This document shows positions 30,713 to 53,195 of a stretch of 64,000 nucleotides of DNA, piece after piece (positions within the stretch are counted from its first letter, which is position 1; each line of letters opens with the position of its first letter). The notes under the pieces are model-generated. The model was given only the letters and a program-made list of their open reading frames with translations, had not been told where the DNA came from and made no database searches. The stretch covers positions 186,001 through 250,000 of the forward strand of contig NZ_PGGM01000002.1 in assembly GCF_003010965.1 (NCBI RefSeq). Reading direction: 5' to 3'. Position numbers and translations under genes: made by a program. This DNA is from Phyllobacterium sophorae. Lineage in GTDB: Bacteria > Pseudomonadota > Alphaproteobacteria > Rhizobiales > Rhizobiaceae.

Positions 30713-32797
30713 CTATTCGCGGTTGCGCCGTGCTGCACGATCCTCTCGCGAGCGGCGTCGCGGCGTTGCATCGCCAGCAATACCATCCTCGCTGACATTC
30801 TTGCGTGGCGGCAGGGTCACAGCCAAAGATAGCTTCGGGAATGGATCGATCTTGTTCGGCATGGCCATGGCATAAACGAAATGTTGCTGGAATTTTGGTT
30901 CCAGCGCCGTCTCGATCTTCTCGATGCGGGTAACTGTGTCTTCAATCTCGCGGCGATAGTTGCGATTAAGCAGGGCCATACGCGCGCCCGTACCGGCGGC
31001 GTTGCCCACGGCCAGGACCTTATCCAGATCGCAATCCGGGATCAGACCCAGGACCATGGCGTATTTGGGGTCGATGAAGGAACCAAACGCACCTGCAAAC
31101 CGGATCTGGTCGACATGATCGATACCGAGCTTGTCCATCAAAAGCTTCACACCGGCATAAAGTGCCGCCTTGGCAAGCTGGATTGCGCGAACGTCGTTCT
31201 GCGTGATGATGATTGTCGGCGAACCTTCATGCAGAAGGTACGAAAAGGTCCGTCCGGTGGCCCTGACACGGGGGGATTTTGCAGCCAGGGCGCCGTCGAC
31301 AACGCCATCTTCGGAGATGATTCCGGAAAGGTACATCTCGGCAATGACTTCAATGATGGCCGATCCACAAATACCCGTGATACCGCTGGCCTGCACGGCT
31401 TCGGCAAAGCCTGCCTCGTCGGACCATTGTTCCGTGCCAATGACGCGGAAACGCGGCTCCAGCGTCACGGGGTCAATGCGCACGCGTTCAATTGCGCCAG
31501 GCGCGGCGCGCTGGCCGCCGGAGATCTCCGCGCCTTCGAAGGCGGGACCAGTCGGAGATGAGGCAGCGACAGTGCGGTGCCTGTTGCCCAGGACGATTTC
31601 GGCGTTGGTCCCGACATCCACGAGCAGCATCATTTCGTCCTGGCGATGCGGGCCTTCGGCCAACGTCGCAGCGGCGGCATCGGCGCCGACGTGCCCCGCA
31701 ATACAGGGCAGCATATAGACCCGTGTTCCGGCGTTCATTGCCAAGCCGATGTCCGTCGCCTTCAGATGAACCGCGCCAGAAACAGCAAGCGCAAAAGGCG
31801 CCCCGCCGAGCTCTGTCGGATCAATGCCAAGGAACAAGTGATGCATAATCGGATTGCCGACGAAGACGGCATCAAGAATGTCTTCGCGCGCAACGCCGCC
31901 CTCGGCGCAAACCTTGTCGATCAGTCCATTTATGGCCTCGCGCACAGCCTGCGTCATGCCTTCCCGGCCGTCCGGGTTCATCATGACGTAGGAGACGCGG
32001 CTCATCAGATCTTCGCCGAAGCGGATTTGCGGATTGGACGTGCCAGCGGATGCGATGGTGCGGACTGAGAGCAGCGACGACAGATGCATGGCGATGGTCG
32101 TCGAGCCGATATCGCAGGCGATGCCATAGGCTTCGTTCTTCAGGCCGGGCCATAGGCCAATCATGGTCGGCCGCGATGTCTCCTCGTCCTGGTATATGGC
32201 GGCTGTAACGCCCCACTCACCCTTGCGCAAAATCTTCTGGACGTTCGGCAGGATGTGGGCATCGACTTCAAGATTGCGGACGCCCCATTCCTTTTCGAGG
32301 GCAGCTTTCAGGCGATCGAGATCACCGAGCGGCTTGTGCATGTCGGGCTCTTCCACCTCGACGTAGCACATATGAACCGCGGGGTTGCGCTCGATGATGC
32401 GCGTATCGGCATCCTTGCGCACAACCTGCGCGTTGACCTGAACATCGTGAGGAACGTCAACGACCAAATCGCCGAGAATTGTCGCCGAGCATGACAGACG
32501 CCGGCCTTCCTTCAGGTCGCGCTTTTCCGCATAGCGCTGTTCCTTCGGCCCGAACTCTGAAATGTGTTCATTGGAGGAAGTAATGCCGTGTTTGGCAAAC
32601 TGCCCCTCCTGCACTTCGACCTGGCAGCGTCCACAAATACCGCGACCACCGCAGACACTTTCGACATACACCCCGAGGGTGCGCGCAGCGTCCAGTACAG
32701 GAGTGCCTACAGGAAAGCGTCCACGCTTACCCGACGGCATGAAGAGAACAAGCGCTTCCTTTGCCGATGCCTCTGGTGCTTTGACGGGTGCGTTCAC
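30713..32797 (-). CDS. Reductive activator of corrinoid methyltransferases (RACo/RamA-like)
   Basis: A 694-residue ATP-dependent activator that reduces an inactive Co(II) corrinoid to Co(I). The N-terminal plant-type [2Fe-2S] ferredoxin domain has Cys49, Cys55, Cys58 and Cys103 (CGGRGICGRC...LSCSA). The rest is the ASKHA/DUF4445 nucleotide-binding region: GIACDIGSTTIAMHL, LLVDVGTNAEIVLG and FAGAFGSFIDPKYAM. A [2Fe-2S] domain makes it RACo-type rather than the two-[4Fe-4S] methanogen RamA. The last 20 residues are strongly basic (PRRRSREDRAARRNRE). Last of the apparent operon vf-MTHFR-Mtr-activator. Such enzymes are best known from anaerobes. Confidence 0.9.
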   Translation of the reverse strand: MNAPVKAPEASAKEALVLFMPSGKRGRFPVGTPVLDAARTLGVYVESVCGGRGICGRCQVEVQEGQFAKHGITSSNEHISEFGPKEQRYAEKRDLKEGRRLSCSATILGDLVVDVPHDVQVNAQVVRKDADTRIIERNPAVHMCYVEVEEPDMHKPLGDLDRLKAALEKEWGVRNLEVDAHILPNVQKILRKGEWGVTAAIYQDEETSRPTMIGLWPGLKNEAYGIACDIGSTTIAMHLSSLLSVRTIASAGTSNPQIRFGEDLMSRVSYVMMNPDGREGMTQAVREAINGLIDKVCAEGGVAREDILDAVFVGNPIMHHLFLGIDPTELGGAPFALAVSGAVHLKATDIGLAMNAGTRVYMLPCIAGHVGADAAAATLAEGPHRQDEMMLLVDVGTNAEIVLGNRHRTVAASSPTGPAFEGAEISGGQRAAPGAIERVRIDPVTLEPRFRVIGTEQWSDEAGFAEAVQASGITGICGSAIIEVIAEMYLSGIISEDGVVDGALAAKSPRVRATGRTFSYLLHEGSPTIIITQNDVRAIQLAKAALYAGVKLLMDKLGIDHVDQIRFAGAFGSFIDPKYAMVLGLIPDCDLDKVLAVGNAAGTGARMALLNRNYRREIEDTVTRIEKIETALEPKFQQHFVYAMAMPNKIDPFPKLSLAVTLPPRKNVSEDGIAGDATPRRRSREDRAARRNRE

Positions 32798-32882
32798 AAT
32801 CGATGCTCCAAACTTTCAAGGCGAGGGGCAGTTTAACCGCCCGCCGCCTTTGTATGCTGGTCAGTTTGCGTAACGCAAACCG

Positions 32883-33845
32883 TCAGCCTGCGGCGCCGCG
32901 CCGCGCCTCGCGACCGCCACGACGGCGACCGCCACCGGCGGAATCGGCCGGCACGGATACAGAGGGCGCTGCTCCTGCCGCTGCTGGCTGGTGATCGCGA
33001 TATTTCTTGATCCAATAGGTGCAATTGGCGTCCGTTCCGTTGAGAACGTTGGCCGCATGAACGGCTTCCATTTCCTGCGGACGGCAGGGGTTCATGATCG
33101 CCGACGTCATGCCGGCGCCGATTACCATCGGAATGAAGCCGGCATTGATGCCATGGCGATGCGGCAGGCCGAAGGATATGTTGGAAAGACCGCAGGTCGT
33201 GTTAACCTTCAGCTCCTCGCGCAAGCGGCGCAGCAGCGCGAAGACCTGGCGGCCAGCGTCGCCAAGCGCGCCAATAGGCATAACCAGCGGATCGACCACG
33301 ATGTCATGCGCTGGAATGCCGAAATCGGCGGCACGCTGCACGATTTTCTTGGCCACGGCGAAACGAACGTCGGGGTCCATAGAAATGCCGGTCTCGTCGT
33401 TGGAGATCGCAACGACAGGCACATTGTATTTCTTGATCAGCGGCAGGATGGCTTCGAGCTTCTCCTCTTCGCCGGTCACGGAGTTGACGAGGGGACGGCC
33501 CTTGGCAACCTTCAGTGCAGCTTCGATGGCAGCGGTAACCGAACTGTCGATAGACAGCGGCACATCGACCAGGTTCTGGACGATTTCCAAGGTCTGAACC
33601 AATAGACCCGGCTCTGTTGCATTTGGATCAACCGCCGTAACACCCGCATTGACATCCAGCATGGTTGCGCCGGCAGCCACCTGCTCCAGCGCATCCTTGA
33701 TGACGGTGTCGAAATTGCCGGATATCATTTCCGCCGCGAGTTTTTTGCGGCCTGTCGGATTGATCCTCTCGCCGATCACGCAGAAGGGCTGATCAAATCC
33801 GATGATGATTTCTTTGGTCGCCGAGGCAACGATCGTGCGGGTCAT
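32883..33845 (-). CDS. Methyltetrahydrofolate:corrinoid methyltransferase (AcsE/MtvA-like)
   Basis: A 320-residue pterin-binding TIM barrel that moves a methyl group between the corrinoid protein and tetrahydrofolate. Pterin-binding motifs are FCVIGERINPTGRKKL, GATMLDVNAG, PLSIDSS, PLVNSVTGE and GLSNISFGLP. Here the direction is probably corrinoid to folate, the catabolic sense. The C-terminal 36 or so residues are a low-complexity Ala/Pro linker ending in GGGRRRGGREARRGAAG. The start ATG 33845 has AGGAAAGG upstream; the frame extends further up to 33935 but overlaps the MTHFR gene there. Confidence 0.88.
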   Translation of the reverse strand: MTRTIVASATKEIIIGFDQPFCVIGERINPTGRKKLAAEMISGNFDTVIKDALEQVAAGATMLDVNAGVTAVDPNATEPGLLVQTLEIVQNLVDVPLSIDSSVTAAIEAALKVAKGRPLVNSVTGEEEKLEAILPLIKKYNVPVVAISNDETGISMDPDVRFAVAKKIVQRAADFGIPAHDIVVDPLVMPIGALGDAGRQVFALLRRLREELKVNTTCGLSNISFGLPHRHGINAGFIPMVIGAGMTSAIMNPCRPQEMEAVHAANVLNGTDANCTYWIKKYRDHQPAAAGAAPSVSVPADSAGGGRRRGGREARRGAAG

Positions 33846-33876
33846 AAGTGCCTTTCCTGGCCGTGCTGGCCGTTCC

Positions 33877-34779
33877 TCAGCTGGCTGCTGCGTTTGCGGA
33901 TGTGTGGGAAGCGTTGTGTACTTTCCACGAGCCACGATCGACGAGCCATTCGGACGATTTTTTCAGGCCGCCGAAGGGGAAGATGTGGATCTGTTTGATC
34001 GCGGAAGCCGGATTTGCAATGGCATGCTGTTCGATCGGGCCAACAACACCCTCGGGTGAGTGGCTCGTGGCGAGCGCCGTCAGGGAGAGGGCATTCTTCT
34101 TCAGGAAGCTGATGGAATTGCCAACACCGCACATGGCGGCATATTTGATCAAAGTGGTGATCTTGGCAGGACCGGCAACGCCAAGGTGCACAGGCAGATC
34201 AACGCCGTGTTCGCGCAGTGATTCCGAATATCGGATGAAGCGATCGGCGTCGAAGCCGAACTGGGTAACAACGCGCAGCTTGGCGCCAGTGCGCTCGCCG
34301 AAATTCTTCTTCAGGCGCAATGCCTCGATTGCGACAGCTTCAGAGAACTCAGGGCTGCCTTCAGGATGACCGGCCACACCCATCTCGGTGATGCCGTATT
34401 TGTCGAAGAAGCCTGTCTCCAGCACTTCCATCGTCGATGAGAATTCCCCGGCCTGACGCTCAAGGCCGCCGCCGATAACGAGAACGTCGGTAACGCCAGC
34501 CTCCTGAGCGGCGCGGCGGATACGGGTTTCGAGGGCTGCCTTGGTCGACAGCCGCCGTGACGCAAAGTGCGGCACCGGCTTGTAACCAAGATCATGAATG
34601 CGCTTGGCCGCAGACGTCAGCGTATCCACGCTGTCGGTGCCCATGTCGGTAATATAGACGCGGGTACCCGCTGGAAACAGACCAGGCAGGTCCTGCGATT
34701 CAATGGCCTGGCGTGCTGCCACTTCGATGGATGCTGCGATCTTTGTCATTGGCTTCGCTCTCAATTCATGAATTGTCAT
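33877..34779 (-). CDS. Methylenetetrahydrofolate reductase-like enzyme
   Basis: A 300-residue MetF-family protein. MTHFR-like segments are GYKPVPHFASRRL, VLVIGGGLER, EMGVAGHPEGSPEFS, LRVVTQFGFDADRF, and HLGVAGPAKITTLIKYA. In this cluster it probably oxidises methyl-THF to methylene-THF. Start taken at ATG 34779 (a GTG is two codons upstream at 34785); either way it overlaps the end of the 100-aa gene upstream, suggesting translational coupling and perhaps a complex. It is distinct from the biosynthetic MetF normally found beside metE/metH. Confidence 0.85.
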   Translation of the reverse strand: MTIHELRAKPMTKIAASIEVAARQAIESQDLPGLFPAGTRVYITDMGTDSVDTLTSAAKRIHDLGYKPVPHFASRRLSTKAALETRIRRAAQEAGVTDVLVIGGGLERQAGEFSSTMEVLETGFFDKYGITEMGVAGHPEGSPEFSEAVAIEALRLKKNFGERTGAKLRVVTQFGFDADRFIRYSESLREHGVDLPVHLGVAGPAKITTLIKYAAMCGVGNSISFLKKNALSLTALATSHSPEGVVGPIEQHAIANPASAIKQIHIFPFGGLKKSSEWLVDRGSWKVHNASHTSANAAAS

Positions 34780-35068
34780 GTCCACCTGCCTTTACAAGCG
34801 CCACAAGGCGTTCCCGATCATATTCGTTTTCAATTCGCGCCAAGGCTGCATCAGCCTCAGTATCCAGATCATCACTTACAGGCACCGGAGTGCCGCGACG
34901 CCATTCCGCCAGATAGGCGTCCGAATCTTTGGCGCCAATCCGCATGGCACACATGTCGATGGCTTCGGTAAAACGAAGGGGAAGCTCGCGCTTTGCTGCC
35001 TGACGGCCCTTCTTGACGGTCACTTGAGCAGGAATGTCCCGCCAATAAACGACAATGAGATCAGCCAT
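34766..35068 (-). CDS. PF13769 'virulence factor' family small protein
   Basis: A 100-residue soluble protein matching the small family labelled 'virulence factor' (PF13769) in rhizobial genomes: MADLIVVYWRDIPAQV, the basic KKGRQAAKRELPLRF, and AYLAEWRRG. The label has no functional basis here. It is the first gene of the operon with the MTHFR-like enzyme and overlaps it, so a subunit or partner role for that enzyme is a reasonable inference. Only one cysteine, so not a MetV-like zinc/Fe-S protein. Two TGTCGCA-like sites lie upstream. Confidence 0.82.
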   Translation of the reverse strand: MADLIVVYWRDIPAQVTVKKGRQAAKRELPLRFTEAIDMCAMRIGAKDSDAYLAEWRRGTPVPVSDDLDTEADAALARIENEYDRERLVALVKAGGHDNS

Positions 35069-35180: not shown

Positions 35181-35186
35181 GGCGAT

Positions 35187-35858
35187 TCAGAAAGGCCAAA
35201 AGCTTGCGGCGTAAGCAACCACACTCGCGGCAATGAAGGCAAAGCCGAAGACAATACTGATAGAGACGACGCCGAGAATGAGTCCTGCGAGCATCAGTCT
35301 GCCGTCCCGCTCGCAGAGCGCAATGCCTATGATTGCGGTAGCCAAGGCAGGAAGCCAATTGGAAAGGGGCATAGGAAGCACGACGGACATGCCAAGAATA
35401 GTGGTGAACACACCCAACCAGCGATCACCTTGTTTGCGTCCGAATGGCCAGTTGCGCGGCCGGATGAACCGCTCCAGCCATTGCAACCAGGGAACGACCT
35501 TGTCCGATATTTGCCGAAAGCGCTCGGGAGAGATCGTTTTGTCGCGCATAAAGGCAGGAAGCCAGACTGACTCGCGGCCCATAACCATCTGCACGGAAAC
35601 AAGAACGAGGGGAATTCCCGTGACGACACCGGTCCCTGGTGGCAGTGGCAAGAGATTCAAAATGGCAAAAAATGTGAGGAGTGCCGCAAAACTTCGATCG
35701 GTAAAGGCGTCTTCAAGCTCGGTGAACGATACCGGCACGACGGCGGTAAGCGACAGATCCTCGAAGACCTGCGAAAGAGAGCGCGGGTCATTGTCCGCTG
35801 TTGAATGTATGGTCGCCTCATCGGGCTTTATTTCATGATCTGCGTCGATAGCGGCCAT
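35187..35858 (-). CDS. ExoD family membrane protein
   Basis: A 223-residue protein of the ExoD family (exopolysaccharide synthesis/alkaline adaptation in Sinorhizobium). About four membrane helices; conserved patches are LLTFFAILNLLPLPPGTGVVTGIPLVLVS and PLSNWLPALATAIIGIALCERDG. The start is uncertain: ATG 35858 follows a purine-rich stretch, and in-frame ATGs are at 35888 and 35909. The real biochemical role of ExoD is unknown. It lies 69 bp after the DUF4893 gene on the same strand. Confidence 0.85.
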   Translation of the reverse strand: MAAIDADHEIKPDEATIHSTADNDPRSLSQVFEDLSLTAVVPVSFTELEDAFTDRSFAALLTFFAILNLLPLPPGTGVVTGIPLVLVSVQMVMGRESVWLPAFMRDKTISPERFRQISDKVVPWLQWLERFIRPRNWPFGRKQGDRWLGVFTTILGMSVVLPMPLSNWLPALATAIIGIALCERDGRLMLAGLILGVVSISIVFGFAFIAASVVAYAASFWPF

Positions 35859-35927
35859 CGTCTCGTCTTTGTTCGTATTTTGACGCATATGGAGCGATAA
35901 TGGTGACATTGCAATGACGAAAGCAAT

Positions 35928-36506
35928 TCAGCGCTTCAATTCAAGAATATCCATGAGCGATTCGAGGGCAGGGGCGGGAAACTCGATCCGGAATTCATTG
36001 CTGCCGGTACGATAGGCATAACCCACCTGGTCATTGTCCGGTCCCGCGCTATACGCCTTCGGCTTCTGGCCGGCAATATAACCGACTCCGAGATAGGTGA
36101 GGCGGTTATCGCTGTCGGTGTAAAAACGTCCCTTCGTCCGCTGTGAACCGCTTGTCTTTTCCAGCACCCAGCCTGACCCATCGTCGATGACACGGCAATC
36201 GAACCAGTCATAGACGGTCAACGGTGGTTCGTTGCCAAGTTTTGTCGTCCGGCATTTCCAGTCGCCGGTCATATTGAAGTCTTCACTGAAAGTGAGGTTG
36301 GCTTTGGCAAGCGTGGCGTTCAACACCTGCACATCCGCTGCAGCGCCGCCCTTTCGCGCCTCATCGAGCGCCTTATTCCTGGTTTCCTCGTATTTGTCGA
36401 GCCGGGCCTGATCGGACTTGGTAATCAGCCGAGTGATCGCCCCGTCGGCGTGAGCATAATTTGCACAAGAAAGGCACAAAATGGTTGCGATAGCGGCGCG
36501 AAACAT
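35928..36506 (-). CDS. DUF4893 secreted protein
   Basis: A 192-residue exported protein of the DUF4893 family, function unknown. A signal peptide (about residues 1-21, FRAAIATILCLSCANYAHA) precedes a domain with the conserved segments DWKCRTTKLGNEPP and VYDWFDCRV. The two cysteines in these may form a disulfide. ATG 36506 starts the signal peptide and has GGAG upstream; the frame runs on to 36551 without a better site. Confidence 0.8.
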   Translation of the reverse strand: MFRAAIATILCLSCANYAHADGAITRLITKSDQARLDKYEETRNKALDEARKGGAAADVQVLNATLAKANLTFSEDFNMTGDWKCRTTKLGNEPPLTVYDWFDCRVIDDGSGWVLEKTSGSQRTKGRFYTDSDNRLTYLGVGYIAGQKPKAYSAGPDNDQVGYAYRTGSNEFRIEFPAPALESLMDILELKR

Positions 36507-36584
36507 CGTGGGATTACTCCTGTTTTGGTCCGGTTTTGTGCAAATGAACAAAGAAACGGTTCATTTGATGGCGCCCGACGCGAG

Positions 36585-37520: not shown

Positions 37521-38219
37521 TCAGGCACCCGAGAGTTGGTTGTGCTTGCGCTTCATGAACGCCTTGGCCGTCTCCACCGCTACCGCCGCATCGCGGCAGT
37601 AAGCGTCGGCGCCGACAGCCTTGCCGAACTCTTCATTCAGCGGCGCACCACCAACCAGCACGACATAGTCGTCACGAATGCCCTTTTCCTTCATCGTGTC
37701 GATCACGACTTTCATATAGGGCATCGTTGTCGTGAGTAGTGCCGACATGCCCAGAATGTCAGGCTGATGCTCTTCGATGGCGGCGAGATAGTTTTCGACG
37801 GGGTTGTTGATGCCAAGGTCGATCACGTCGAAGCCGGCACCTTCCATCATCATCCCGACGAGGTTTTTGCCAATGTCGTGAATATCGCCTTTGACCGTTC
37901 CAATTACGAGCTTGCCCTGTTTGGGGGCGCCGGTGGCGGCGAGAAGGGGACGCAGAATAAACATGCCGGCTTTCATCGCATTGGCTGAAAGCAGAACTTC
38001 CGGCACGAAAAGAATGCCGTCGCGGAAATCCTCGCCGACGATGCGCATTCCCTCGACCAGAGCTTCGGTAAGGACCTTGTAGGGTGCCCAGCCGCGCTCA
38101 AGAAGAATTTGAGTGCCTTCCTCGATTTCTTCCTTCAATCCGTCATACAGATCATCGTGCATTTGCTCGACGAGTTCATCGTCCGAAAGCTCCGAAAGAA
38201 TGATTTCATCATCGGCCAT
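37521..38219 (-). CDS. Cobalamin-binding corrinoid protein (MtbC/MtgC-like)
   Basis: A 232-residue carrier that holds B12 and passes methyl groups between methyltransferases. The N-terminal helical cap (about 1-90) is followed by the B12 Rossmann domain with the His-on signature GDIHDIGKNLVGMMMEGAGF and later GMSALLTTTMPYMK and VLVGGAPLN. The first 37 residues are strikingly acidic (about 15 Asp/Glu, one Lys), opposite in charge to the Arg-rich tails of its likely partners. ATG 38219 has GAAAGG upstream; the frame start at 38237 is a TTG. Divergent from mttB at 38462, with a shared 242-bp promoter region. Confidence 0.93.
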   Translation of the reverse strand: MADDEIILSELSDDELVEQMHDDLYDGLKEEIEEGTQILLERGWAPYKVLTEALVEGMRIVGEDFRDGILFVPEVLLSANAMKAGMFILRPLLAATGAPKQGKLVIGTVKGDIHDIGKNLVGMMMEGAGFDVIDLGINNPVENYLAAIEEHQPDILGMSALLTTTMPYMKVVIDTMKEKGIRDDYVVLVGGAPLNEEFGKAVGADAYCRDAAVAVETAKAFMKRKHNQLSGA

Positions 38220-38311
38220 GGGTATGCGTCCTTTCAAGCGTTATGCACAGGTCAGTATCATAACTGGCGTTCTATTAACATATCGGGCAAGTTGCTGAAA
38301 ACGCATCGCTT

Positions 38312-40134: not shown

Positions 40135-40821
40135 ATGACCGTTACTCATCCGATCCTCGATCAAATCGCCGCCGCGCTGGAGCCATATGGTTTGGTCCAG
40201 CGCGGCGGTATTGTTTTTGATGAAGTTAACGTTCCTTCGCCCTTGATCCGGGGATCGCATTTTCGAAGCGTCGTCCTGGTGGGGCACTTCGGCTCATCGA
40301 TTTGGCCGCATTTCGTACGATGGCGAGAAGATCATCCGGGCGCGCAAGATCCGCTCGATACCTGGTCCAGGGAAGTGTTGACTGCGGTGGCCGCAAGATT
40401 TGGCGCAACGGCGGTGTTTCCGTCCGACCAGCCCTATCTGCCGTTTCAGCAATGGGCGATGTGCGCCGAAGGACTGAATACTTCTCCGCTCGGAATATTG
40501 ATTCATCCGCAATATGGGCTATGGCACGCATTTCGTGGGGCACTTCTGTTTGATCATGTGCTCGACTTGTCCAGCGGTGGTCCGCAACGTCATCCCTGTG
40601 ACGATTGCCGGGACAGGCCGTGCCTTTCAGCCTGCCCAGTGAATGCTTTCTCCATTGACGGATATGATGTCGTTCGTTGCCGTGGCCATCTTGCTTCCGG
40701 AGAAGGGGACACGTGCATAACCGGCGGTTGCCTGGCGCGCCGCGCCTGTCCTGTCGGACACGAGCATGCCTACTCTGCACAACAGATGCGGTTTCATATG
40801 CATGCATTCGCGAAAGCCTGA
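40135..40821 (+). CDS. Ferredoxin-like Fe-S protein
   Basis: A 228-residue protein with a C-terminal cysteine cluster: CDDCRDRPCLSACP (CxxCx4CxxxCP) followed by DTCITGGCLARRACP, eight or more cysteines in all, enough for two [4Fe-4S] clusters. The N-terminal part (about 1-145) has SVVLVGHFGSSIWPHF and GILIHPQYGLWHAFRGALLF and may be a nucleotide or cofactor-binding domain, distantly like QueG. Place directly behind mttB suggests an electron donor for corrinoid reactivation, but that is inference. It precedes padR by 147 bp. Confidence 0.75.
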   Translation: MTVTHPILDQIAAALEPYGLVQRGGIVFDEVNVPSPLIRGSHFRSVVLVGHFGSSIWPHFVRWREDHPGAQDPLDTWSREVLTAVAARFGATAVFPSDQPYLPFQQWAMCAEGLNTSPLGILIHPQYGLWHAFRGALLFDHVLDLSSGGPQRHPCDDCRDRPCLSACPVNAFSIDGYDVVRCRGHLASGEGDTCITGGCLARRACPVGHEHAYSAQQMRFHMHAFAKA

Positions 40822-40950: not shown

Positions 40951-40968
40951 ACTAGGAGACATCATTCC

Positions 40969-43563: not shown

Positions 43564-43669
43564 TTCTTCTCCGCATTGTTTACTAAGTACAACATATGCT
43601 TCATTTGGTGCGCATAATCAACACTTTCTCACAATAATCGCATTGCTGACAACTCCTGACAATGAGACC

Positions 43670-44833: not shown

Positions 44834-44854
44834 ACTAGACCTTAAGTGTAGAAC

Positions 44855-45622
44855 ATGACCTTTGTTGCGGCTCTGCCGATGTACGATCTGCCCGAACGGC
44901 GCGCCGAAGTGGACGCGCAGTGGATAAGCATGCGCGCTATCCTTCGCTCAAACGGATATGACGCACCTGAATATCTGATACGGCGCAATGCCGATCTTCC
45001 GGCGGTCCCCGGCGGTATCAAGGATGCTGCGGGCAATGTCATCGCGCCTGACCCGGCGACGCTTCCCCCCGACGAGCTCGATCTGCCGACGATGTGGCGC
45101 CATCCGGATTTGCTGATAACGCAAAGCTGTTGGGGCCCGATGGAACTGGGTCTCGACCGGCATGTCCATCTCGCCGGGCAGGACGACTATTCAGGCATAG
45201 AGGGCGGCGATGGTGAACTTTACTCCAGCGCGCTGGTCATGCGGCGAGGCGAGGGAGAGCCGGTCGCGGCCCCGGCGGACGGGAGAGCGAGACTCCCGAT
45301 CGATCTCATGCGGCACAAGCGGCTGGCCTTCAACAGCCGCGACTCGATGTCCGGCTACCTTGCGCTTCATCGTGATTTGAAAGCGCAGGACAAAACGTTT
45401 GGCCTGTTCGGCGGTCTTGTCGAGACCGGCGGGCACCGCGCCTCGATTGAGACGGTTGCCACGGGCCGCGCCGATATCGCCGCCATTGATTGCAAATCAT
45501 GGGAGCTGGCGCAGCGGTATGACGAGGCGGCGAGTGCGTTGATTGTCGTTGGCTGGACGGGCAGGCGCAAGGGCCTGCCCTTTATCTCTTCTCGAAAGCT
45601 ACCCGCGCATCTTTTCGCCTGA
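44855..45622 (+). CDS. PhnD-like substrate-binding protein without signal peptide
   Basis: A 255-residue protein of the phosphate/phosphonate-binding (PhnD, COG3221) group: LITQSCWGPMELG, RLAFNSRDSMSGYLALHRDL, and IAAIDCKSWELAQRYD match the ligand-binding fold. There is no signal peptide (starts MTFVAALPMYDLPERRAE) and no permease or ATPase next to it, so it is probably a cytosolic binding or sensor protein. Its last 24 bases overlap the end of the convergent dehydrogenase gene. Confidence 0.8.
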   Translation: MTFVAALPMYDLPERRAEVDAQWISMRAILRSNGYDAPEYLIRRNADLPAVPGGIKDAAGNVIAPDPATLPPDELDLPTMWRHPDLLITQSCWGPMELGLDRHVHLAGQDDYSGIEGGDGELYSSALVMRRGEGEPVAAPADGRARLPIDLMRHKRLAFNSRDSMSGYLALHRDLKAQDKTFGLFGGLVETGGHRASIETVATGRADIAAIDCKSWELAQRYDEAASALIVVGWTGRRKGLPFISSRKLPAHLFA

Positions 45623-48175
45623 CGGATCAAACGGCGGCTCGACAGTGATGCGGGCGGCACGGCGGATACCGAGGATCTCCACCTCGAACATCCCCTGATC
45701 TTCATGGGTTGCAAGCTCTGCGGGCACGTAGCCCTGTGCCATGGAATGGCCGACGAAGTGAGCGTAGCCGCCGGACGTGACCCACCCGACAACGCGCCAC
45801 TCACCTTGGATGGCACCCTTGTCGCCCGCGTTGGCGACGACCTCTCCGGTCGCGTCAAAGCGCGGCGCGCCGACGCCATGACCGGCCTGCACGACGCCGT
45901 AATCCTTTGAAGTTTTTGCCCAGATCGGCTCATCGCCCATCACATCGGCAGCGCCATCGCCATGCGGCACGTCAATCAGGAAAGAAACACGGCGCAGTCT
46001 TGTACTGGTTCCTGCGTCGAATTCCGCCTTTTCCTTGGCGGCTGCTTCGCGGCCGATAAAATCATTCTTGGATAGTTTGATGAAACGGTCCATCGAGCCT
46101 TCGTATGGCCCGTAGATCGGTCGCAGCTCACGGAACCAAGTCGGAAAGTTCTTCTCAAGCCGCATGGCGAGCAGGGCGCGCATGCCGAAATCGACGATGT
46201 TGTATTCGGCTCCAGCTTCCTTGATCCTCTTGTAGACGAGGCGCTGGTAAGCTGGCTCCATCCAGATTTCATAACCCAGGTCGCCCGTATAGGAGATGCG
46301 GTTGACCTTGCATGGAGCGCCGCCAACGGCCATCTCGCGGAAATCCATGAAGCGGAATGCGGCGTTAGACACATCTTCATCGACGAGTTTGGCAAGGAGG
46401 TCGCGGGCTTTCGGACCGGCAATTGCAAGGCCCACGAGCGTCTGGTCGAAGCGGTGAATGCGGACTGAGCCATCCTTCGGTTGATGCTTCTGAAACCAGC
46501 GCATGTGATAGCGCTGGGCGGCGGACGACCCCCAGATCAGAAAGCGATCATCAGCGGCCTTGGCAATGGTGAAGTCGCCGATCAGTTTCCCCTTTTCATT
46601 GAGCATTGGGGTAAGGACGAGGCGTCCCGTCTTCGGCATTGTATTGGTCATCAGGTGCGAGAGGTAGGCTTCAGCGCCGCTGCCCGTCACTTCATATTTG
46701 GCGAAGTTGGCGATTTCCGTAATGCCGACACTTGTCCGTGTGGCGCGGACCTCATTGCCGACATGCTCGAAGTCGTTGGAACGATGGTAGGATACGATGT
46801 CGCGCGCTTCAGTGCCCTCGGGTGCGAACCAAAGCGGCGTTTCGAGGCCCCAGGAATCGCCCATCACAGCATTCTGGCCGAGCATCGTATCGTAGAGGGG
46901 CGTGGTCTGTTGCGGACGCCCTGCCGGCAGTTCCTCGTTGGGGAAGCGGATGGAGAAACGCCGCGAATAGTTCTCACGCACCTTGGCGTTGGTGTAGCGC
47001 AGGGTCGCCCATTCGCCGAAGCGGGCAACATCCATGCCCCAGACGTCGAAGCCCGGTTCGCCATGCACCATCCAGTTGGAGAGAGCGAGGCCTACGCCGC
47101 CGCCCTGGCTGAACCCGGCCATGACGGCGCAGGCAGTCCAATAATTGGTGAGGCCCGGTACCGGACCTACCAGCGGGTTGCCGTCGGGTGCGAAGGTGAA
47201 CGGACCGTTGATGATCTGCTTGATCCCGGCCCTTTCGATGCCGGGAAAATGCTTGAAGCCGACTTCGAGGGAAGGCGCGATACGATCGATGTCCGGCGGC
47301 AAAAGCTCATGGCCGAAATCCCACGGCGTATTGACCGGAGACCATGGCTTGGCAGCCTTTTCATAGGTGCCGAGGAGGATGCCGTTGCGTTCCTGGCGCG
47401 TGTAGATCTCACCCTTGAAGTCCATGACGCCGATAAGTTCACGCCCTGTCGATTTGTTGAACTCCATGACTTCCGGCACGTCCTCTGTCAGGAGATACAT
47501 GTGTTCCATGGCGAGAACCGGCAGTTCCAAACCGACCATGCGGCCGACTTCGCGCGCCCACAGCCCGCCGCAATTGACAACGTGCTCGGCCTTCACGGTG
47601 CCTTGCTCCGTGACGACGTTCCAGGTGCCATCGGTTTCCTGCGTCAGTTCGACGACACGATTGCGCAGGGAAATTTCGGCACCAAGCTTTCGAGCGGCCT
47701 TGGCATAGGCGTGGGTTGTGCCCGACGGATCAAGGTGGCCCTCGACCGGATCCCACATGGCACCGACGAAATTGGTCTCGTCCATGAGGGGGAACATGGC
47801 CTTCGCCTCGGATGGCGTTATCAGTTCGGTGTCCATGCCGAGATAGCGGCCGCGAGCATGGGCAAGCCGAAGAAAATCCATACGCTCCGGTGAATCCGCC
47901 ATCATGACCCCACCGGTCAGATGCAGACCACAGGACTGGCCCGAAAGCTCCTCGATCTCCTTGTAGAGGCTGACCGTATAGGCCTGCAGCTTGGCAACAT
48001 TCGGATCGCCATTAAGCGTATGGAAACCGCCGGCCGCATGCCAGGAAGAGCCGGATGTCAGTTCCGATCGCTCGATCAGCATCACGTCGGTCCAGCCGGC
48101 GCGTGCAAGGTGATAGAGGACCGAGCATCCGACAACGCCACCGCCAATGACCACTGCTTTAACGTGCGATTTCAT
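45599..48175 (-). CDS. GcvT-type FAD dehydrogenase, second copy (dimethylglycine dehydrogenase-like)
   Basis: An 858-residue paralogue of the enzyme at 23004-25520: VVIGGGVVGCSVLYHLARAG, the covalent-flavin histidine in SGSSWHAAGG, and a C-terminal GcvT folate domain. It is longer at the C-terminus by about 20 residues, with an insert near MGDEPIWAK. Placed 59 bp downstream of the second mttB and co-directional with it, so the pair probably demethylates one compound in turn. ATG 48175 is preferred to the ATG at 48190 (GAGG upstream). Confidence 0.88.
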   Translation of the reverse strand: MKSHVKAVVIGGGVVGCSVLYHLARAGWTDVMLIERSELTSGSSWHAAGGFHTLNGDPNVAKLQAYTVSLYKEIEELSGQSCGLHLTGGVMMADSPERMDFLRLAHARGRYLGMDTELITPSEAKAMFPLMDETNFVGAMWDPVEGHLDPSGTTHAYAKAARKLGAEISLRNRVVELTQETDGTWNVVTEQGTVKAEHVVNCGGLWAREVGRMVGLELPVLAMEHMYLLTEDVPEVMEFNKSTGRELIGVMDFKGEIYTRQERNGILLGTYEKAAKPWSPVNTPWDFGHELLPPDIDRIAPSLEVGFKHFPGIERAGIKQIINGPFTFAPDGNPLVGPVPGLTNYWTACAVMAGFSQGGGVGLALSNWMVHGEPGFDVWGMDVARFGEWATLRYTNAKVRENYSRRFSIRFPNEELPAGRPQQTTPLYDTMLGQNAVMGDSWGLETPLWFAPEGTEARDIVSYHRSNDFEHVGNEVRATRTSVGITEIANFAKYEVTGSGAEAYLSHLMTNTMPKTGRLVLTPMLNEKGKLIGDFTIAKAADDRFLIWGSSAAQRYHMRWFQKHQPKDGSVRIHRFDQTLVGLAIAGPKARDLLAKLVDEDVSNAAFRFMDFREMAVGGAPCKVNRISYTGDLGYEIWMEPAYQRLVYKRIKEAGAEYNIVDFGMRALLAMRLEKNFPTWFRELRPIYGPYEGSMDRFIKLSKNDFIGREAAAKEKAEFDAGTSTRLRRVSFLIDVPHGDGAADVMGDEPIWAKTSKDYGVVQAGHGVGAPRFDATGEVVANAGDKGAIQGEWRVVGWVTSGGYAHFVGHSMAQGYVPAELATHEDQGMFEVEILGIRRAARITVEPPFDPSGEKMRG

Positions 48176-48234
48176 AGTCTTATGCCTCATGTATGGGAAT
48201 GTGATTCAATTCGTTGAGAATGCGATTCAACTGG

Positions 48235-49815
48235 TCAGAAATCAGTTGGCGCGCCACCTTCGGCCTTGCGCTTCGCGACAAAGGCATTGATTTCCTCCTC
48301 GATCCCGGGGTCGATTTCCGGTTTCTGGTAGGTCGCCAGACGCTCTTTCCAGACCCGGTTGGCGCGTTCGATGGCCGTGGGCGAACCGGCCTCCTGCCAG
48401 GTTTCATAATTGCGCCAGTCTGAAATAATCGGCGCGTAGAAGGCAGTCTTGTAACGTGATTGCGTATGGGCCGTGCCGAAGAAATGGCCGCCCGGACCTA
48501 CATCGCGCATCGCATCGATGCCGAGTGCGTCTTCAGACAGATCAAGCGGCGTCAGGAATTCCGCCACCATTTGCAACAGGTCGAAATCCAGGATCATCTT
48601 TTCATAGGAGCAGCAGAGTCCGCCTTCGAGCCAACCGGCGGAATGCAGCATGAAATTGGCGCCCCCCTGGATCGCGCCCCAGAGCGAGAACACCGATTCG
48701 TAGGCAGCCTGGGCATCGACGGTGTTCGCGGCGCAGACATTCGAGGTGCGGTAGGGGATGCCGTACCGGCGGGCGAGCTGGCCGCCGACCATCTGGGCTT
48801 TCATGTATTCAGGCGTACCGAAGGCCGGGGCTCCGGATTTCATATCGACATTGGACGTGAAGCCGCCATAGCCGACGGGCGCACCCTTCTTGACCATCTG
48901 GGTGAAGGAGATACCAGCGAGAGCCTCTGCATTCTGCTGGACCAGCGCACCAGCGATCGTTACCGGGGCCATGGCGCCGGCGAGCGTGAAAGGCGTCACA
49001 ATGACGACCTGGCCGTTGCCCGACATCTGTATGATGCCTTCCATCATCGGAATGTCGAGCTTCAGCGGAGAATTGGTATTGATGATCGTGTAGCAGGATG
49101 CCTCGCTCTGCAGCTGTTCATGGCTGACGCCACGGGCGAGGCGGGCAATCTCAATGCCGTCCTGATTGCGTTCTTTACCGAGCGAATAGATATGGAACGG
49201 TTTGTCGGTCAACGTTGCCAGATCGCGGATACATTCCAGATGACGAACCGATGGGTGAATGTCGATTGGCTCGACGGGATAGCCACCGGTCGCATTTATG
49301 ATGTTGTGCATCTGCGCCAGTTTCAGGAAATTGCGGAAATCCGCCTGGTTGCCCGAACGTCTGCCATTGTCGGTATCCGAACAATTGGGCGCCGATCCCA
49401 TCTGCGCAAGAATCAAATTGTTACCGCCAAAGCGGACATTGTGTGCCGGATTGCGGGCACGCAGCGTGAATTCGGATGGTGCATGGCTGACATATTCGAG
49501 GATCATGTCCTTGTCGAAATGTACGCGCATCGTGCCAGGGGTGACATCGGCACCAGCCCTTTTCATGATTTCACGCGCACCGTCATGCAGAACGTCGACG
49601 CCGATTTCCTCCAACACTCTCAGCGAACCGTTGTGAATGGATTCCAGTTCATCGTCGGAAACGATTTTTGTCGGCGCGAATGGAATTTTCAGCTGGCGGA
49701 ATGGTGGCTGGTCGAAGGCTCCGCTTTCCACGCTGCGGGGCCGGGACCGACCACCACGCCGGCCATGATCCCGCGATGATGTGTTCGTGTCGATCTCAAC
49801 TGCAGGTTCATTCAT
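48235..49815 (-). CDS. MttB-family methylamine:corrinoid methyltransferase, copy 2
   Basis: A 526-residue non-pyrrolysine MttB homologue, paralogous to the one at 38462-40048 (shared GAMAPVTIAGALVQQ/GAMSPVTVAGTLTQV and MLHSAGWLEGGL/VLHSAGWLEGGL blocks). Its N-terminus is Arg-rich (RDHGRRGGRSRPRS, residues 15-28) before the barrel. No corrinoid protein gene adjoins it, so it would share the one at 37521. It heads a two-gene operon with the GcvT-type dehydrogenase. Confidence 0.88.
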   Translation of the reverse strand: MNEPAVEIDTNTSSRDHGRRGGRSRPRSVESGAFDQPPFRQLKIPFAPTKIVSDDELESIHNGSLRVLEEIGVDVLHDGAREIMKRAGADVTPGTMRVHFDKDMILEYVSHAPSEFTLRARNPAHNVRFGGNNLILAQMGSAPNCSDTDNGRRSGNQADFRNFLKLAQMHNIINATGGYPVEPIDIHPSVRHLECIRDLATLTDKPFHIYSLGKERNQDGIEIARLARGVSHEQLQSEASCYTIINTNSPLKLDIPMMEGIIQMSGNGQVVIVTPFTLAGAMAPVTIAGALVQQNAEALAGISFTQMVKKGAPVGYGGFTSNVDMKSGAPAFGTPEYMKAQMVGGQLARRYGIPYRTSNVCAANTVDAQAAYESVFSLWGAIQGGANFMLHSAGWLEGGLCCSYEKMILDFDLLQMVAEFLTPLDLSEDALGIDAMRDVGPGGHFFGTAHTQSRYKTAFYAPIISDWRNYETWQEAGSPTAIERANRVWKERLATYQKPEIDPGIEEEINAFVAKRKAEGGAPTDF

Positions 49816-50112: not shown

Positions 50113-51186
50113 TTACTCCGCCGCGGCCCGGGAGGTCAGGTGGCTGATCGGTGTCACCATGGCCTGGATCAGGCTGTTCATGCTGATCACGCCGGTCGGC
50201 TTGCCACTATCGTCGACAACCGTCGCATATTGCTGGTTGGCGTCGGTCATGGTTTTGGCAGCTTCTTCCAGGATGGTCCCGCTCTTGACCGTAACGCCTC
50301 CCGTTGCAGCCGGAGCACCCGAATGAGTCGCGATGGTATCGACCATGATGACGCGGCCGCGGTTGACTTCCTTGACAAAGCTCGAGATGTACTCGTCCGC
50401 GGGCTTCAGAACGATGTCCTGGCCAGTCCCTTGCTGGACGACTTCGCCATCGCGCAGGATTGCGATGCGGTCTCCAAGCCGCAGTGCTTCGTCGAGATCG
50501 TGGGTGATAAAAACGACGGTCTTCTTGATTTCCTTCTGCAGATCGAGAAGCACTGATTGCATATCCATGCGGATCAGCGGGTCGAGCGCGGAAAACGCTT
50601 CGTCCATCAGCAGGATAGGAGCGTCATTCGTCAGCGCGCGGGCGAGGCCGACACGCTGCTGCATACCACCGGAAAGCTGATTTGGATAATGGTCCTCAAA
50701 GCCTTTCAACCCGACTCTTGCGATCCAGCGGCGCGCCTGTTCTTCCTGTTTTTCCCGGGAAAGCCCCTGGATTTCCAGACCGTAAACGGTGTTGTCGAGC
50801 ACCGTGCGATGGGGAAGCAGGGCGAACTTCTGGAAAACCATCGCTGTCTTGTGCCGGCGGAACTGGCGCAGATCGTTCTGGTTCATCTTGCAGACGTCGG
50901 CGTTGTCAATGATGACCTCGCCCGCCGTCGGGTCGATCAAACGATTGATGTGGCGGATCAGCGTGGATTTTCCCGAACCGGAAAGGCCCATGACCACCTG
51001 AATGCAACCAGCCGGCATGTCGATATTGATATCGCGTAGGCCAAGGACATGACCGTGTTTTTCATTCAGTTCCGTCTTGGACATACCCTTCTTGACGGCT
51101 TCGACATAGGCGTCCGGTCTTTGACCAAAAATCTTGTATAGATTCTTGATCTTGATACCGGCGCCTTGAACGTTGCGATCAGCCAT
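50113..51186 (-). CDS. proV: Glycine betaine/proline ABC transporter ATP-binding protein
   Basis: A 357-residue ATPase of the betaine importer. Walker A GLSGSGKST, signature LSGGMQQRVGLARAL, Walker B ILLMDEAFSALDP, and a C-terminal CBS-like regulatory region (about 280-357: ATVVDDSGKPTGVISMNSL). ATG 51186 lies 8 bp inside the end of proW; the frame runs to 51333 without another site. Confidence 0.95.
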   Translation of the reverse strand: MADRNVQGAGIKIKNLYKIFGQRPDAYVEAVKKGMSKTELNEKHGHVLGLRDINIDMPAGCIQVVMGLSGSGKSTLIRHINRLIDPTAGEVIIDNADVCKMNQNDLRQFRRHKTAMVFQKFALLPHRTVLDNTVYGLEIQGLSREKQEEQARRWIARVGLKGFEDHYPNQLSGGMQQRVGLARALTNDAPILLMDEAFSALDPLIRMDMQSVLLDLQKEIKKTVVFITHDLDEALRLGDRIAILRDGEVVQQGTGQDIVLKPADEYISSFVKEVNRGRVIMVDTIATHSGAPAATGGVTVKSGTILEEAAKTMTDANQQYATVVDDSGKPTGVISMNSLIQAMVTPISHLTSRAAAE

Positions 51187-52066
51187 GGACCACCTCCTGG
51201 TGCTTCTGAAGACGCTTGCCATAGGCCTGACTAACGCGATCGAAAATGATGGCAATGCCAACGATGGCAAGGCCGTTGAAAAGTCCGAGAGAGAAGAACT
51301 GGCCATTGACGGAACGCAGCACCGGCTGGCCAAGACCCTGAACGCCGATCATCGAGGCGATGACCACCATGGCAAGAGCCATCATGATGGTCTGGTTGAT
51401 GCCAGCCATGATCGTGGGAAGGGCGAGAGGTATCTGCACATTCTTCAAACGCTGCCAGCTGGAGGACCCGAAAGCATCCGCTGCTTCCAGCACGTCCTTG
51501 TCGACAAGCCTGATGCCCAGATTTGTCAGGCGGATCATCGGCGGAATGGCATAGATGACTACAGCGATCAGCCCCGGCACCTTGCCGATACCCAAAAGCA
51601 TGACGACGGGGATCAGGTAGACGAAACTCGGCATGGTTTGCATCACGTCGAGAATGGGATTGACAAGACGCTGGAAACTATCCGAACGCGCCATGACGAT
51701 GCCTATGGGAATGCCGACGACAATGGAGACGACCGTTCCGACGAAAATCATGGCGATGGTCTTCATCGCATCGCTCCACATGTCGAAATAGCCAATGAGG
51801 AGCAGGGTGATGACGGTTCCTGCAACGATCTTCCAGTTGCGGCTGGCGATCCAGGCGATGCCACCGATCAGGAGGATCATGATGGGCCAGGGCGTCGCCG
51901 TCATAAAGCGCTCGGCCTGGATAAGAAAATACTGCAGCGGCTCGAAAAAGGATTCGATGACATCGCCATATTGACGGGTGAAAGCCTTGAAGCCCTCATC
52001 CAATGTCTTTTTCAGATTGCGCAGCGTGTCGTCATTCATATTTGGGAATGAGTAGAACCAATCCAT
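51179..52066 (-). CDS. proW: Glycine betaine/proline ABC transporter permease
   Basis: A 295-residue inner-membrane permease with about six helices and the permease EAA loop EAADAFGSSSWQRLKNVQIPLALPTIMAG. Overlaps proV by 8 bp. It imports betaine for osmoprotection or, as here likely, as a carbon and methyl source. Confidence 0.95.
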   Translation of the reverse strand: MDWFYSFPNMNDDTLRNLKKTLDEGFKAFTRQYGDVIESFFEPLQYFLIQAERFMTATPWPIMILLIGGIAWIASRNWKIVAGTVITLLLIGYFDMWSDAMKTIAMIFVGTVVSIVVGIPIGIVMARSDSFQRLVNPILDVMQTMPSFVYLIPVVMLLGIGKVPGLIAVVIYAIPPMIRLTNLGIRLVDKDVLEAADAFGSSSWQRLKNVQIPLALPTIMAGINQTIMMALAMVVIASMIGVQGLGQPVLRSVNGQFFSLGLFNGLAIVGIAIIFDRVSQAYGKRLQKHQEVVHG

Positions 52067-52155
52067 GTCAGTACCCTTCTATAGCCATCCCCAGCGCTAC
52101 GCCCTTGAATGACTGAAGCGGTTGAAAGCGATGGCGTTCAACCTATCGAGAGTGG

Positions 52156-52184: not shown

Positions 52185-52193
52185 TGACTGTCG

Positions 52194-53195
52194 TTATTGT
52201 ATGGCCGCTTTAACTTTATCTGCGGCTTCCGGAGAAACCCACTTTGTCCAAACGGCCTCATTGTTCTTGAGGTAGTATTTAGCGCCATCTTCGCCTGTCG
52301 CCTGATTGTCGACCATCCAGGCAAGCAGCTTGTTGAATTCGTCAGTCGAAAGCTGCCGCTTTTTCAGATAGTCGAACGCTGGACCCGAAGAGTCGGCGAA
52401 CTTCTTTGTAACAACCGTATAAATATCAGAGATTGCCCAACCATTGGGTTTTGGATCCGGGCAGTCGGCAACGACAGTGCATCGTTTCCATTCCGCTTCG
52501 TCAAACGGTACGCCGTTCTCGAGCTTGACCATGGGATACTTGCCGAGAATGGCCGTGGGACCCCAATAATAGCCCAGCCAGGGATCCTTGCGCTCATACG
52601 CCTTTGCAATCGAACCATCGAGGCCGGCAGCAGATCCTGTGTCGACGAGTGTGAAGCCATTTTTTTCGCCTTCATAGGCTTTGAAAAAATTGGTCGTCGT
52701 AATCTGGCAGGCCCAACCCGATGGACAGTTAAAGACCGCGCCCTTCTTCGGATCTTCCGGCGAGGGAAACAGCTCCGGATGTTTCATGGCATCGGCGATC
52801 GTCTTGATTTCAGGATGCTCATCAGCGAAATATTTGGGAATCCACCAGCTTTCCGTACCGCCTTCGGTGATCGCAGGCGCGGCATAGACTAGCTTTTCTT
52901 CCTTGACCGCCTTTTCCAGCTGGTCGCGAACGGTGTTGAGCCAGCCCTCCGGCGCGATGTCCGGCTGACCTTTCTCAATCATTGATGTAAACGTCGGGAC
53001 TGTATCACCCGCAACGAGTTCGGCATCGCAACCATAGCCTTCGCTAAGGATGATCTTGTCGAGATTGGCAAGGGCTTCTGCCGACTGCCAGTTCATGTTG
53101 GCGATTGTAACTGTACCGCATTCAGCCGCTGATGCCGATCCGGCATAACCGAACAGACCAGCGGCCAATATAGTTGAAGCGAGCAGCTTCTTCAT
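52194..53195 (-). CDS. proX: Glycine betaine/proline substrate-binding protein
   Basis: A 333-residue periplasmic binding protein of the OpuAC/ProX type with a signal peptide (about 1-23, GYAGSASA). Trp-rich ligand region: ANMNWQSAEALANLDK, PEGWLNTVRDQL, GGTESWWIPKYFADEH. First gene of proXWV. Confidence 0.95.
   Translation of the reverse strand: MKKLLASTILAAGLFGYAGSASAAECGTVTIANMNWQSAEALANLDKIILSEGYGCDAELVAGDTVPTFTSMIEKGQPDIAPEGWLNTVRDQLEKAVKEEKLVYAAPAITEGGTESWWIPKYFADEHPEIKTIADAMKHPELFPSPEDPKKGAVFNCPSGWACQITTTNFFKAYEGEKNGFTLVDTGSAAGLDGSIAKAYERKDPWLGYYWGPTAILGKYPMVKLENGVPFDEAEWKRCTVVADCPDPKPNGWAISDIYTVVTKKFADSSGPAFDYLKKRQLSTDEFNKLLAWMVDNQATGEDGAKYYLKNNEAVWTKWVSPEAADKVKAAIQ

What the first reader, a model, noticed from the sequence alone, without database searches (positions are those of the whole stretch)
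30713..53195. Apparent corrinoid-dependent betaine demethylation supercluster in an alphaproteobacterium
Within about 22 kb lie every part of a methyl-transfer chain known best from anaerobes: two non-pyrrolysine MttB methyltransferases, a His-on corrinoid protein, an AcsE/MtvA-like folate methyltransferase, a RACo-type reductive activator, and an MTHFR-like oxidising enzyme, together with bmt, a dimethylglycine dehydrogenase-like enzyme and ProXWV. The host encodes oxygen-dependent systems (sarcosine oxidase, PuuD, cobN route), so this Co(I)-dependent chain may work in a largely aerobic cell. The seen genes support the pathway; substrate and direction are inferred.
Basis: partly seen in the sequence, partly recalled or inferred. 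Interest (0 to 1): 0.75.

Follow-up and report, generated by a model that had tools for sequence, protein, structure and literature searches.

The report
Vitamin B12 betaine-demethylation gene cluster
A bacterium related to Phyllobacterium carries a full B12-based gene set for stripping methyl groups from betaines; the core system is already known from air-breathing relatives, but a conserved neighbour gene looks like an undescribed bacterial B12-handling iron-sulfur protein.

Summary
The core is the MtgBCDE system, published as an aerobic corrinoid-dependent glycine-betaine demethylase and methionine synthase in Ruegeria; that paper names the same colocalisation in Sinorhizobium meliloti (PMC12478193). 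Genes shared with a S. meliloti locus are 51-91% identical, and the core recurs in 55-63 of 63 full-length related loci. "bmt" is best read as MtgE.

Three things look new. (1) The gene beside MttB1 (40135-40821, no Pfam match over cut-off) has eight invariant cysteines, a sub-threshold MMACHC/CblC match in 30 of 30 aligned members, and a predicted fold closest to MMACHC, QueG and reductive dehalogenases: a candidate undescribed B12/[4Fe-4S] family. (2) The MetF-MetV pair of other clusters is replaced here by a different MTHFR. (3) MttB2, paired with a dimethylglycine-dehydrogenase-like enzyme, lacks a predicted betaine-binding tyrosine and probably acts on another betaine. Substrates, oxygen behaviour and B12 binding are inferred.

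The parts
30713..32797 (-). RACo/RamA-type reductive activator (N-terminal 2Fe-2S domain, ASKHA C-terminal)
   Evidence: PF14574 300 bits, PF17651, PF17650, PF00111; 76% to the S. meliloti protein
32883..33935 (-). MtgD: methyl-THF:corrinoid methyltransferase (true start probably internal; the family match starts at residue 51)
   Evidence: NF005719 396 bits, over cut-off; PF00809; 91% to S. meliloti
33877..34785 (-). MetF2: divergent MTHFR, candidate methyl-THF oxidising enzyme, in place of MetF-MetV
   Evidence: PF02219 35 bits; PDB 7xg9 E 9.6e-51, next 3.4e-6
34769..35068 (-). small 'virulence factor'-type ORF (100 aa) shared with MetF-MetV clusters; the name is only an annotation label
   Evidence: 74% to the S. 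meliloti ORF
35187..35909 (-). ExoD-family protein, role in the cluster unknown
   Evidence: PF06055 168 bits; 11 of 63 full-length loci
35928..36551 (-). DUF4893 protein, role unknown; in 57 of 63 full-length loci
   Evidence: PF16233 155 bits
36585..37208 (-). DUF1638 protein, second corrinoid-activation factor
   Evidence: PF07796 92 bits; 60% to S. meliloti; fitness link to B12 reactivation in Phaeobacter (PMC5764234 passages)
37521..38237 (-). MtgC: corrinoid protein with DxHxxG
   Evidence: PF02310, PF02607; MtgC models match below their cut-offs; DIHDIG at 118; 89% to S. meliloti
38462..40048 (+). MttB1 / MtgB: non-pyrrolysine, probable glycine betaine:corrinoid methyltransferase
   Evidence: PF06253 788 bits; 83% to S. 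meliloti; keeps Y94/N199/R309/H345 of D. hafniense MtgB
40135..40821 (+). Candidate MMACHC(CblC)-fold protein with eight Fe-S-type cysteines; proposed corrinoid reductase/loader (inferred)
40939..41574 (+). PadR-family regulator
   Evidence: PF03551 67 bits; 10 of 63 full-length loci
41624..42637 (-). MtgE ('bmt'): homocysteine S-methyltransferase module
   Evidence: NF005718 560 bits; C214 and GGCCG at 278; 80% to S. meliloti bmt
42727..43563 (-). HTH-type regulator
   Evidence: PF01381; 44 of 63 full-length loci
43388..44710 (+). fatty-acid-desaturase-like protein, role unknown
   Evidence: PF00487 113 bits; 39 of 63
44855..45622 (+). PhnD-like binding protein, role unknown
   Evidence: PF12974 41 bits; 36 of 63
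45599..48190 (-). dimethylglycine-dehydrogenase-like FAD/GcvT enzyme, partner of MttB2
   Evidence: PF01266, PF01571, PF16350, PF08669; present in 14 of 20 chosen MttB2 regions
48235..49815 (-). MttB2: second non-pyrrolysine MttB, substrate probably a different betaine
   Evidence: PF06253 670 bits; 42% to MttB1; G at the Y94 position
50113..51333 (-). ProV-type ATPase of a betaine/choline-type ABC importer
   Evidence: TIGR01186 360 bits, over cut-off
51179..52066 (-). ProW-type permease
   Evidence: TIGR03416 274 bits, below cut-off 363; PF00528
52194..53195 (-). ProX/OpuAC-type binding protein
   Evidence: PF04069 218 bits
57887..58121 (+). cobalamin riboswitch between cobQ and cobU/cobW
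   Evidence: RF00174 86.1 bits, E 7.7e-20; CobQ, CobU, CobW

Best explanation
This is a Phyllobacterium-type version of the aerobic MtgBCDE system. MttB1 moves a methyl group from a quaternary betaine, most likely glycine betaine, to Co(I) of MtgC. MtgD moves it on to tetrahydrofolate. MetF2 oxidises methyl-THF to methylene-THF, which enters C1 oxidation. MtgE can divert the methyl group to homocysteine. RACo and DUF1638 reactivate corrinoid that has slipped to Co(II). Family assignments and gene order are shown here; the chemistry and direction are inferred from published genetics in Ruegeria, Phaeobacter and S. meliloti. MttB2 with the dimethylglycine-dehydrogenase-like enzyme and, in this genome, ProXWV is a second substrate module feeding the same MtgC, probably from another betaine (inferred). 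The ORF beside MttB1 is probably a B12-binding, double [4Fe-4S] protein that helps to load or reduce the corrinoid (inferred).
For: Family matches. S. meliloti counterpart locus: MttB 83%, MtgC 89%, MtgD 91%, RACo 76%, bmt 80%, DUF1638 60% identical. Core synteny in 63 full-length loci of 80: RACo 56, MtgD 61, DUF1638 62, MtgC 62, MttB1 63 (the query), MtgE 55. In 240 alphaproteobacterial genomes MttB and RACo co-occur (49 both, 2 MttB only, 6 RACo only, 183 neither), and DUF1638 with MttB (42 both, 1 DUF1638 only, 9 MttB only, 188 neither). MttB1 keeps all four shared docked betaine residues. Ruegeria mtgC and mtgD mutant phenotypes (PMC12478193); Phaeobacter fitness data for RamA-like and DUF1638 proteins (PMC5764234 passages).
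Against: No substrate, direction or oxygen tolerance was tested. MtgC scores 215 and 180 bits, below the curated MtgC cut-offs of 370 and 310. The docked residues are themselves predictions, and the aromatic F353 of D. hafniense MtgB is G in both window MttBs. The genome also has full-length MetH and two GbcAB-like Rieske pairs, so the chain may be redundant or conditional.
Confidence: 0.85

Rival explanations
1. The chain mainly runs towards methionine (methyl-THF to MtgD to MtgC to MtgE), with betaine use minor.
For: MtgE sits in the cluster and in 55 of 63 full-length loci; the Phaeobacter split methionine synthase uses these parts (PMC5764234 passages).
Against: The host has a full MetH (1746 bits); two MttB genes and a dimethylglycine-dehydrogenase-like gene are in the cluster; in Ruegeria MtgBCD rise and MtgE falls slightly on N-osmolytes (PMC12478193).
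Confidence: 0.12
2. MttB2 is just a second glycine betaine methyltransferase under different control, not a different-substrate enzyme.
For: It keeps N199, R309 and H345 and sits with a dimethylglycine-dehydrogenase-like enzyme and a betaine-type importer.
Against: G replaces Y94; only 42% identical to MttB1 and 37% to D. hafniense MtgB; three plasmid relatives that I looked at sit near Rieske, Ldh-family, 2OG-Fe(II) or mandelate-racemase-family genes, some of which I recall from proline-betaine-type catabolism.
Confidence: 0.35
3. The ORF at 40135-40821 is only a ferredoxin-like electron carrier with no B12 function, kept nearby by chance or shared regulation.
For: The S. meliloti homologue is annotated ferredoxin; MMACHC matches are below the Pfam cut-off; Foldseek has no match at E 0.001 or better; 13 of 50 alphaproteobacterial genomes with it lack MttB at E 1e-60, and ten nearby ORFs scanned in six of those loci match no B12 family.
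Confidence: 0.3
4. Aerobically, betaine is demethylated by the GbcAB-like Rieske oxygenases, and the corrinoid chain serves only low-oxygen niches.
For: Two GbcAB-like pairs in the genome (GbcA 514 and 523 bits, cut-off 670; GbcB 340 and 381, cut-off 500), besides three further Rieske alpha-type matches.
Against: PMC12478193 shows MtgBCD-type betaine growth in Ruegeria and presents it as an aerobic system; the Rieske pairs score below the equivalog cut-offs and may act on other betaines.
Confidence: 0.2

Closest known systems
MtgBCDE glycine betaine demethylase / split methionine synthase of Ruegeria pomeroyi and S. meliloti (PMC12478193; PMC5764234)
   Same: Same modules (PF06253, PF02310, PF00809, PF02574, RamA/RACo, DUF1638); shared genes lie in the same order as in S. 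meliloti apart from bmt's surroundings.
   Different: MetF, MetV and the formyl transferase of the S. meliloti locus are absent from the window and a different MTHFR stands in their place; a second MttB2 module and ProXWV lie in the same supercluster. MetH is retained, as PMC12478193 says of Hyphomicrobiales.
Desulfitobacterium hafniense MtgABC (anaerobic glycine betaine system)
   Same: MttB1 is 45% identical to MtgB and keeps four docked residues; a corrinoid protein and a folate step are present.
   Different: Its second-step enzyme is called MtgA; PMC12478193 places roseobacter MtgC apart from the D. hafniense one (I made no tree of MtgC).
MMACHC/CblC and the class III B12/[4Fe-4S] enzymes QueG and reductive dehalogenase (for the ORF at 40135-40821)
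   Same: Predicted fold over about 180 residues; weak motif match to MMACHC 147-167 (E 0.27); eight cysteines as in QueG (PMC4646009 passages).
   Different: About 60% of QueG's length, ending 23 residues after the last cysteine, so no room for QueG's C-terminal helical domain; MMACHC lacks the ferredoxin part (PMC4646009); score below the PF16690 cut-off.
Oxidising MTHFR subfamily (Sphingobium SYK-6 type, PMC13001107) and PDB 7xg9
   Same: MetF2's best solved relative by far is 7xg9; catabolic use of the cluster needs the oxidising direction.
   Different: Here it is paired with a corrinoid chain, not with a LigM demethylase; that 7xg9 is the SYK-6 enzyme is recalled, not shown by a call.

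Membership tests
MtgBCDE aerobic betaine system | Non-pyrrolysine PF06253 methyltransferase (MtgB) | tested here: met
   MttB1 788 bits, no in-frame TAG
MtgBCDE aerobic betaine system | Stand-alone B12-binding protein MtgC with DxHxxG | tested here: met
   PF02310/PF02607, DIHDIG at 118, 89% to the S. meliloti protein; NCBIfam MtgC models match below cut-off
MtgBCDE aerobic betaine system | Pterin-binding MtgD | tested here: met
   NF005719 over cut-off; 91% to S. meliloti
MtgBCDE aerobic betaine system | Homocysteine module MtgE with cysteine ligands | tested here: met
   NF005718 over cut-off; C214 and GGCCG 278; that these are the zinc ligands is recalled
MtgBCDE aerobic betaine system | RamA/RACo and DUF1638 reactivation proteins | tested here: met
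   PF14574 and PF07796
MtgBCDE aerobic betaine system | MtgC and MtgD needed for betaine growth and for methionine synthesis | not testable with these tools
   Needs mutants of this strain; shown for Ruegeria in PMC12478193
MMACHC (Pfam PF16690) for ORF 40135-40821 | Score at or above the Pfam gathering cut-off | tested here: not met
   20.8 bits against 27, E 3.3e-4, the best of the 30 members, all 30 of which match at E up to 1
MMACHC (Pfam PF16690) for ORF 40135-40821 | MMACHC-type fold | tested here: met
Class III B12/[4Fe-4S] enzymes (QueG, RdhA) for ORF 40135-40821 | Eight cysteines for two [4Fe-4S] clusters after the B12 domain | tested here: met
   Invariant in 30 of 30 and all eight in 46 of 48 homologues from other families
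Class III B12/[4Fe-4S] enzymes (QueG, RdhA) for ORF 40135-40821 | Binds base-off cobalamin | not testable with these tools
   Needs purified protein and spectra
QueG epoxyqueuosine reductase for ORF 40135-40821 | C-terminal helical-repeat domain after the ferredoxin region | tested here: not met
   The protein ends 23 residues after the last cysteine (domain layout from PMC4646009 passages)
Acetogen-type MetF-MetV reductase | MetV partner (PF12225) in the genome | tested here: not met
   0 matches in the own genome at E 0.001, against 58 of 80 neighbour loci with a MetV homologue
Oxidising SYK-6-type MTHFR | Prefers oxidation of methyl-THF | not testable with these tools
   Only similarity to PDB 7xg9

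The most novel reading that the evidence does not exclude
The ORF at 40135-40821 founds an undescribed, widespread family of compact class III cobalamin proteins: a bacterial CblC-type B12 module joined to a double [4Fe-4S] relay. It takes oxidised or alkylated cobalamin, reduces or dealkylates it and delivers it to MtgC, which is what lets a Co(I)-dependent methyl-transfer chain run in an air-breathing cell.
Probability: 0.33. Interest if true: 0.8.

Novelty: new variant of a known kind. Interest (0 to 1): 0.5.

Why it matters
The aerobic betaine-demethylating system, described mainly for marine bacteria, is common in the host's own family: an MttB in 110 of 151 genomes. The conserved MMACHC-like iron-sulfur protein makes an open question testable: how aerobes keep a Co(I) methyl-transfer chain alive, and whether bacteria have CblC-type B12 handling at all (a 2016 paper on Salmonella says that bacteria do not have CblC homologues; PMC5070874, passage seen). 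PMC4646009 (passage) suggested that further B12/[4Fe-4S] families might exist and would have to be sought among genes with C-terminal ferredoxin-like modules; this protein fits that description.
Full report
Observation. Both MttB genes are continuous ORFs; MttB1 has no in-frame TAG, and MtgC has DxHxxG. A cobalamin riboswitch lies at 57887-58121, with cobQ before it and cobU and cobW after it. The host is close to Phyllobacterium: MttB1 is 98% identical to that of Phyllobacterium sp. 2063. The genome (6.35 Mb, 99.3% complete) has a third MttB on another contig, 54% identical to MttB1 and keeping all four docked residues, between an MFS transporter and an SbmA-like ABC protein.

What the core is. 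A S. meliloti locus (L112) holds bmt, a 'ferredoxin', MttB, the corrinoid protein, DUF1638, a formyl transferase, a small 'virulence factor' (VF), an MTHFR C-terminal-domain protein that I call MetV, an MTHFR (MetF), MtgD and the ASKHA activator. Identities to the window: MttB 83%, MtgC 89%, MtgD 91%, RACo 76%, DUF1638 60%, bmt 80%, VF 74%, 'ferredoxin' 51%; MetF, MetV and the formyl transferase gave no match in the window. Of the 80, 63 are full-length (21 kb or more); at 45% identity and 40% coverage the counts are RACo 56, MtgD 61, DUF4893 57, DUF1638 62, MtgC 62, MttB1 63, the ORF at 40135 62, MtgE 55 of 63; the 17 shorter loci were left out of these counts. PMC12478193 (main text parts 1-4 of 6 read; passages) describes this system in Ruegeria pomeroyi: mtgC and mtgD mutants lose methionine prototrophy and growth on betaine, MetF2 is the most increased protein on N-osmolytes, RamA and DUF1638 rise too, and the S. 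meliloti cluster is named. [quoted passage not shown] So the core is a known kind.

Do the parts always co-occur? In samples of 240 alphaproteobacterial genomes (the same request each time, with shared handles): MttB (E 1e-60 or better) in 51, DUF1638 in 43, RACo in 55. MttB with RACo: 49 both, 2 MttB only, 6 RACo only, 183 neither. DUF1638 with MttB: 42 both, 1 DUF1638 only, 9 MttB only, 188 neither. So nearly, not always. Relatedness was not corrected for, so the Fisher values overstate the evidence.

Second module. MttB2 is 42% identical to MttB1 and 37% to D. hafniense MtgB; MttB1 is 45% identical to MtgB. PMC6855144 (passages) proposed Y94, N199, R309 and H345 as betaine contacts by docking. 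MttB1 keeps all four; MttB2 has G for Y94 and keeps the rest; F353, also proposed there, is G in both. In 20 MttB2 regions that I chose from the 110 of 151 family genomes with a match, the dimethylglycine-dehydrogenase-like gene lies with it in 14, and 11 also show the HTH, desaturase and PhnD genes of the window; a twelfth (L132) shows MtgE. ProX, ProW and ProV together lie beside it in 1 of the 20 (L113, same genus). In one search MttB2 appears in 6 of 63 loci and ProXWV in 2, but the 10-kb flank barely reaches MttB2 and ends before ProV, so those counts are lower bounds. Three plasmid relatives at 47-57% identity (of 196 records with a match) lie near Rieske, Ldh-family, 2OG-Fe(II), FAD-oxidoreductase or mandelate-racemase-family genes, one of them also near a glycine-betaine-type binding protein. 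I infer a different betaine, possibly proline-betaine-like; this is not shown.

MTHFR swap. Of 80 loci, 58 have homologues of S. meliloti MetF and MetV; nine (L010-L017 and L020) have the window-type MetF2 instead, and none shows both; the small VF ORF is present in all 67 of these; 13 loci, most of them short, show none of these. A further family genome (L117) has MetF2 with VF. The own genome has no MetV family match and two MTHFR matches, a standard one and MetF2. MetF2's best solved relative is 7xg9 at E 9.6e-51, the next at 3.4e-6. PMC13001107 (passages) describes an MTHFR subfamily from Sphingobium SYK-6 that prefers oxidation; that 7xg9 is that enzyme is recalled. This looks like a lineage-specific replacement of the methyl-oxidising step.

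How tightly is it tied to the chain? In 151 genomes of the family 92 have it, and all 92 have an MttB; 18 have MttB without it and 41 have neither. In the class sample 50 of 240 have it: 37 with MttB, 13 without, and 14 MttB genomes lack it. Outside the family mtg or activation genes lie nearby in only 4 of 48 loci, and ten nearby ORFs in six loci of MttB-less genomes match no B12 family. In a 398-genome phylum sample 59 have it; only some first-look candidates were scored, so these numbers may be low. A general B12-handling role, recruited into the betaine cluster in this family, fits better than a dedicated MttB subunit.

Redundancy in the host. Full-length MetH (1746 bits) and two GbcAB-like pairs (GbcA 514 and 523 bits, cut-off 670) are present.

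Verdict. Core: a new member of a known system. With the MTHFR swap, the second module and the candidate B12/[4Fe-4S] protein: a new variant of a known kind. Interest 0.5.

Noticed in passing
window 42727-45622: An HTH regulator, a fatty-acid-desaturase-like protein and a PhnD-like binding protein sit beside mtgE in 44, 39 and 36 of 63 full-length loci; I know of no role for them in betaine use.
   Followed up: no
window 34769-35068: The small VF ORF is kept where MetF and MetV are missing (67 of 80 loci have it: 58 with MetF-MetV and 9 with MetF2), so it may serve the methyl-oxidising step or MtgD rather than MetV.
   Followed up: partly
L090 9968-11509 (own genome C5): A third MttB, 54% identical to MttB1 and with all four docked betaine residues, between an MFS transporter and an SbmA-like ABC protein.
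   Followed up: partly
window 36585-37208: The DUF1638 model is confident but has no clear fold match; its role in B12 reactivation remains unexplained.
   Followed up: partly
window 8006-11573, 23004-25520, 26496-27494: Sarcosine-oxidase-type genes, a second dimethylglycine-dehydrogenase-like gene and a GbdR-like regulator (below its cut-off) lie in the same 64 kb, so the later demethylation steps are probably local too.
   Followed up: no
window 21033-22757: A 574-aa ORF on the minus strand with no NCBIfam match at 1e-30.
   Followed up: no
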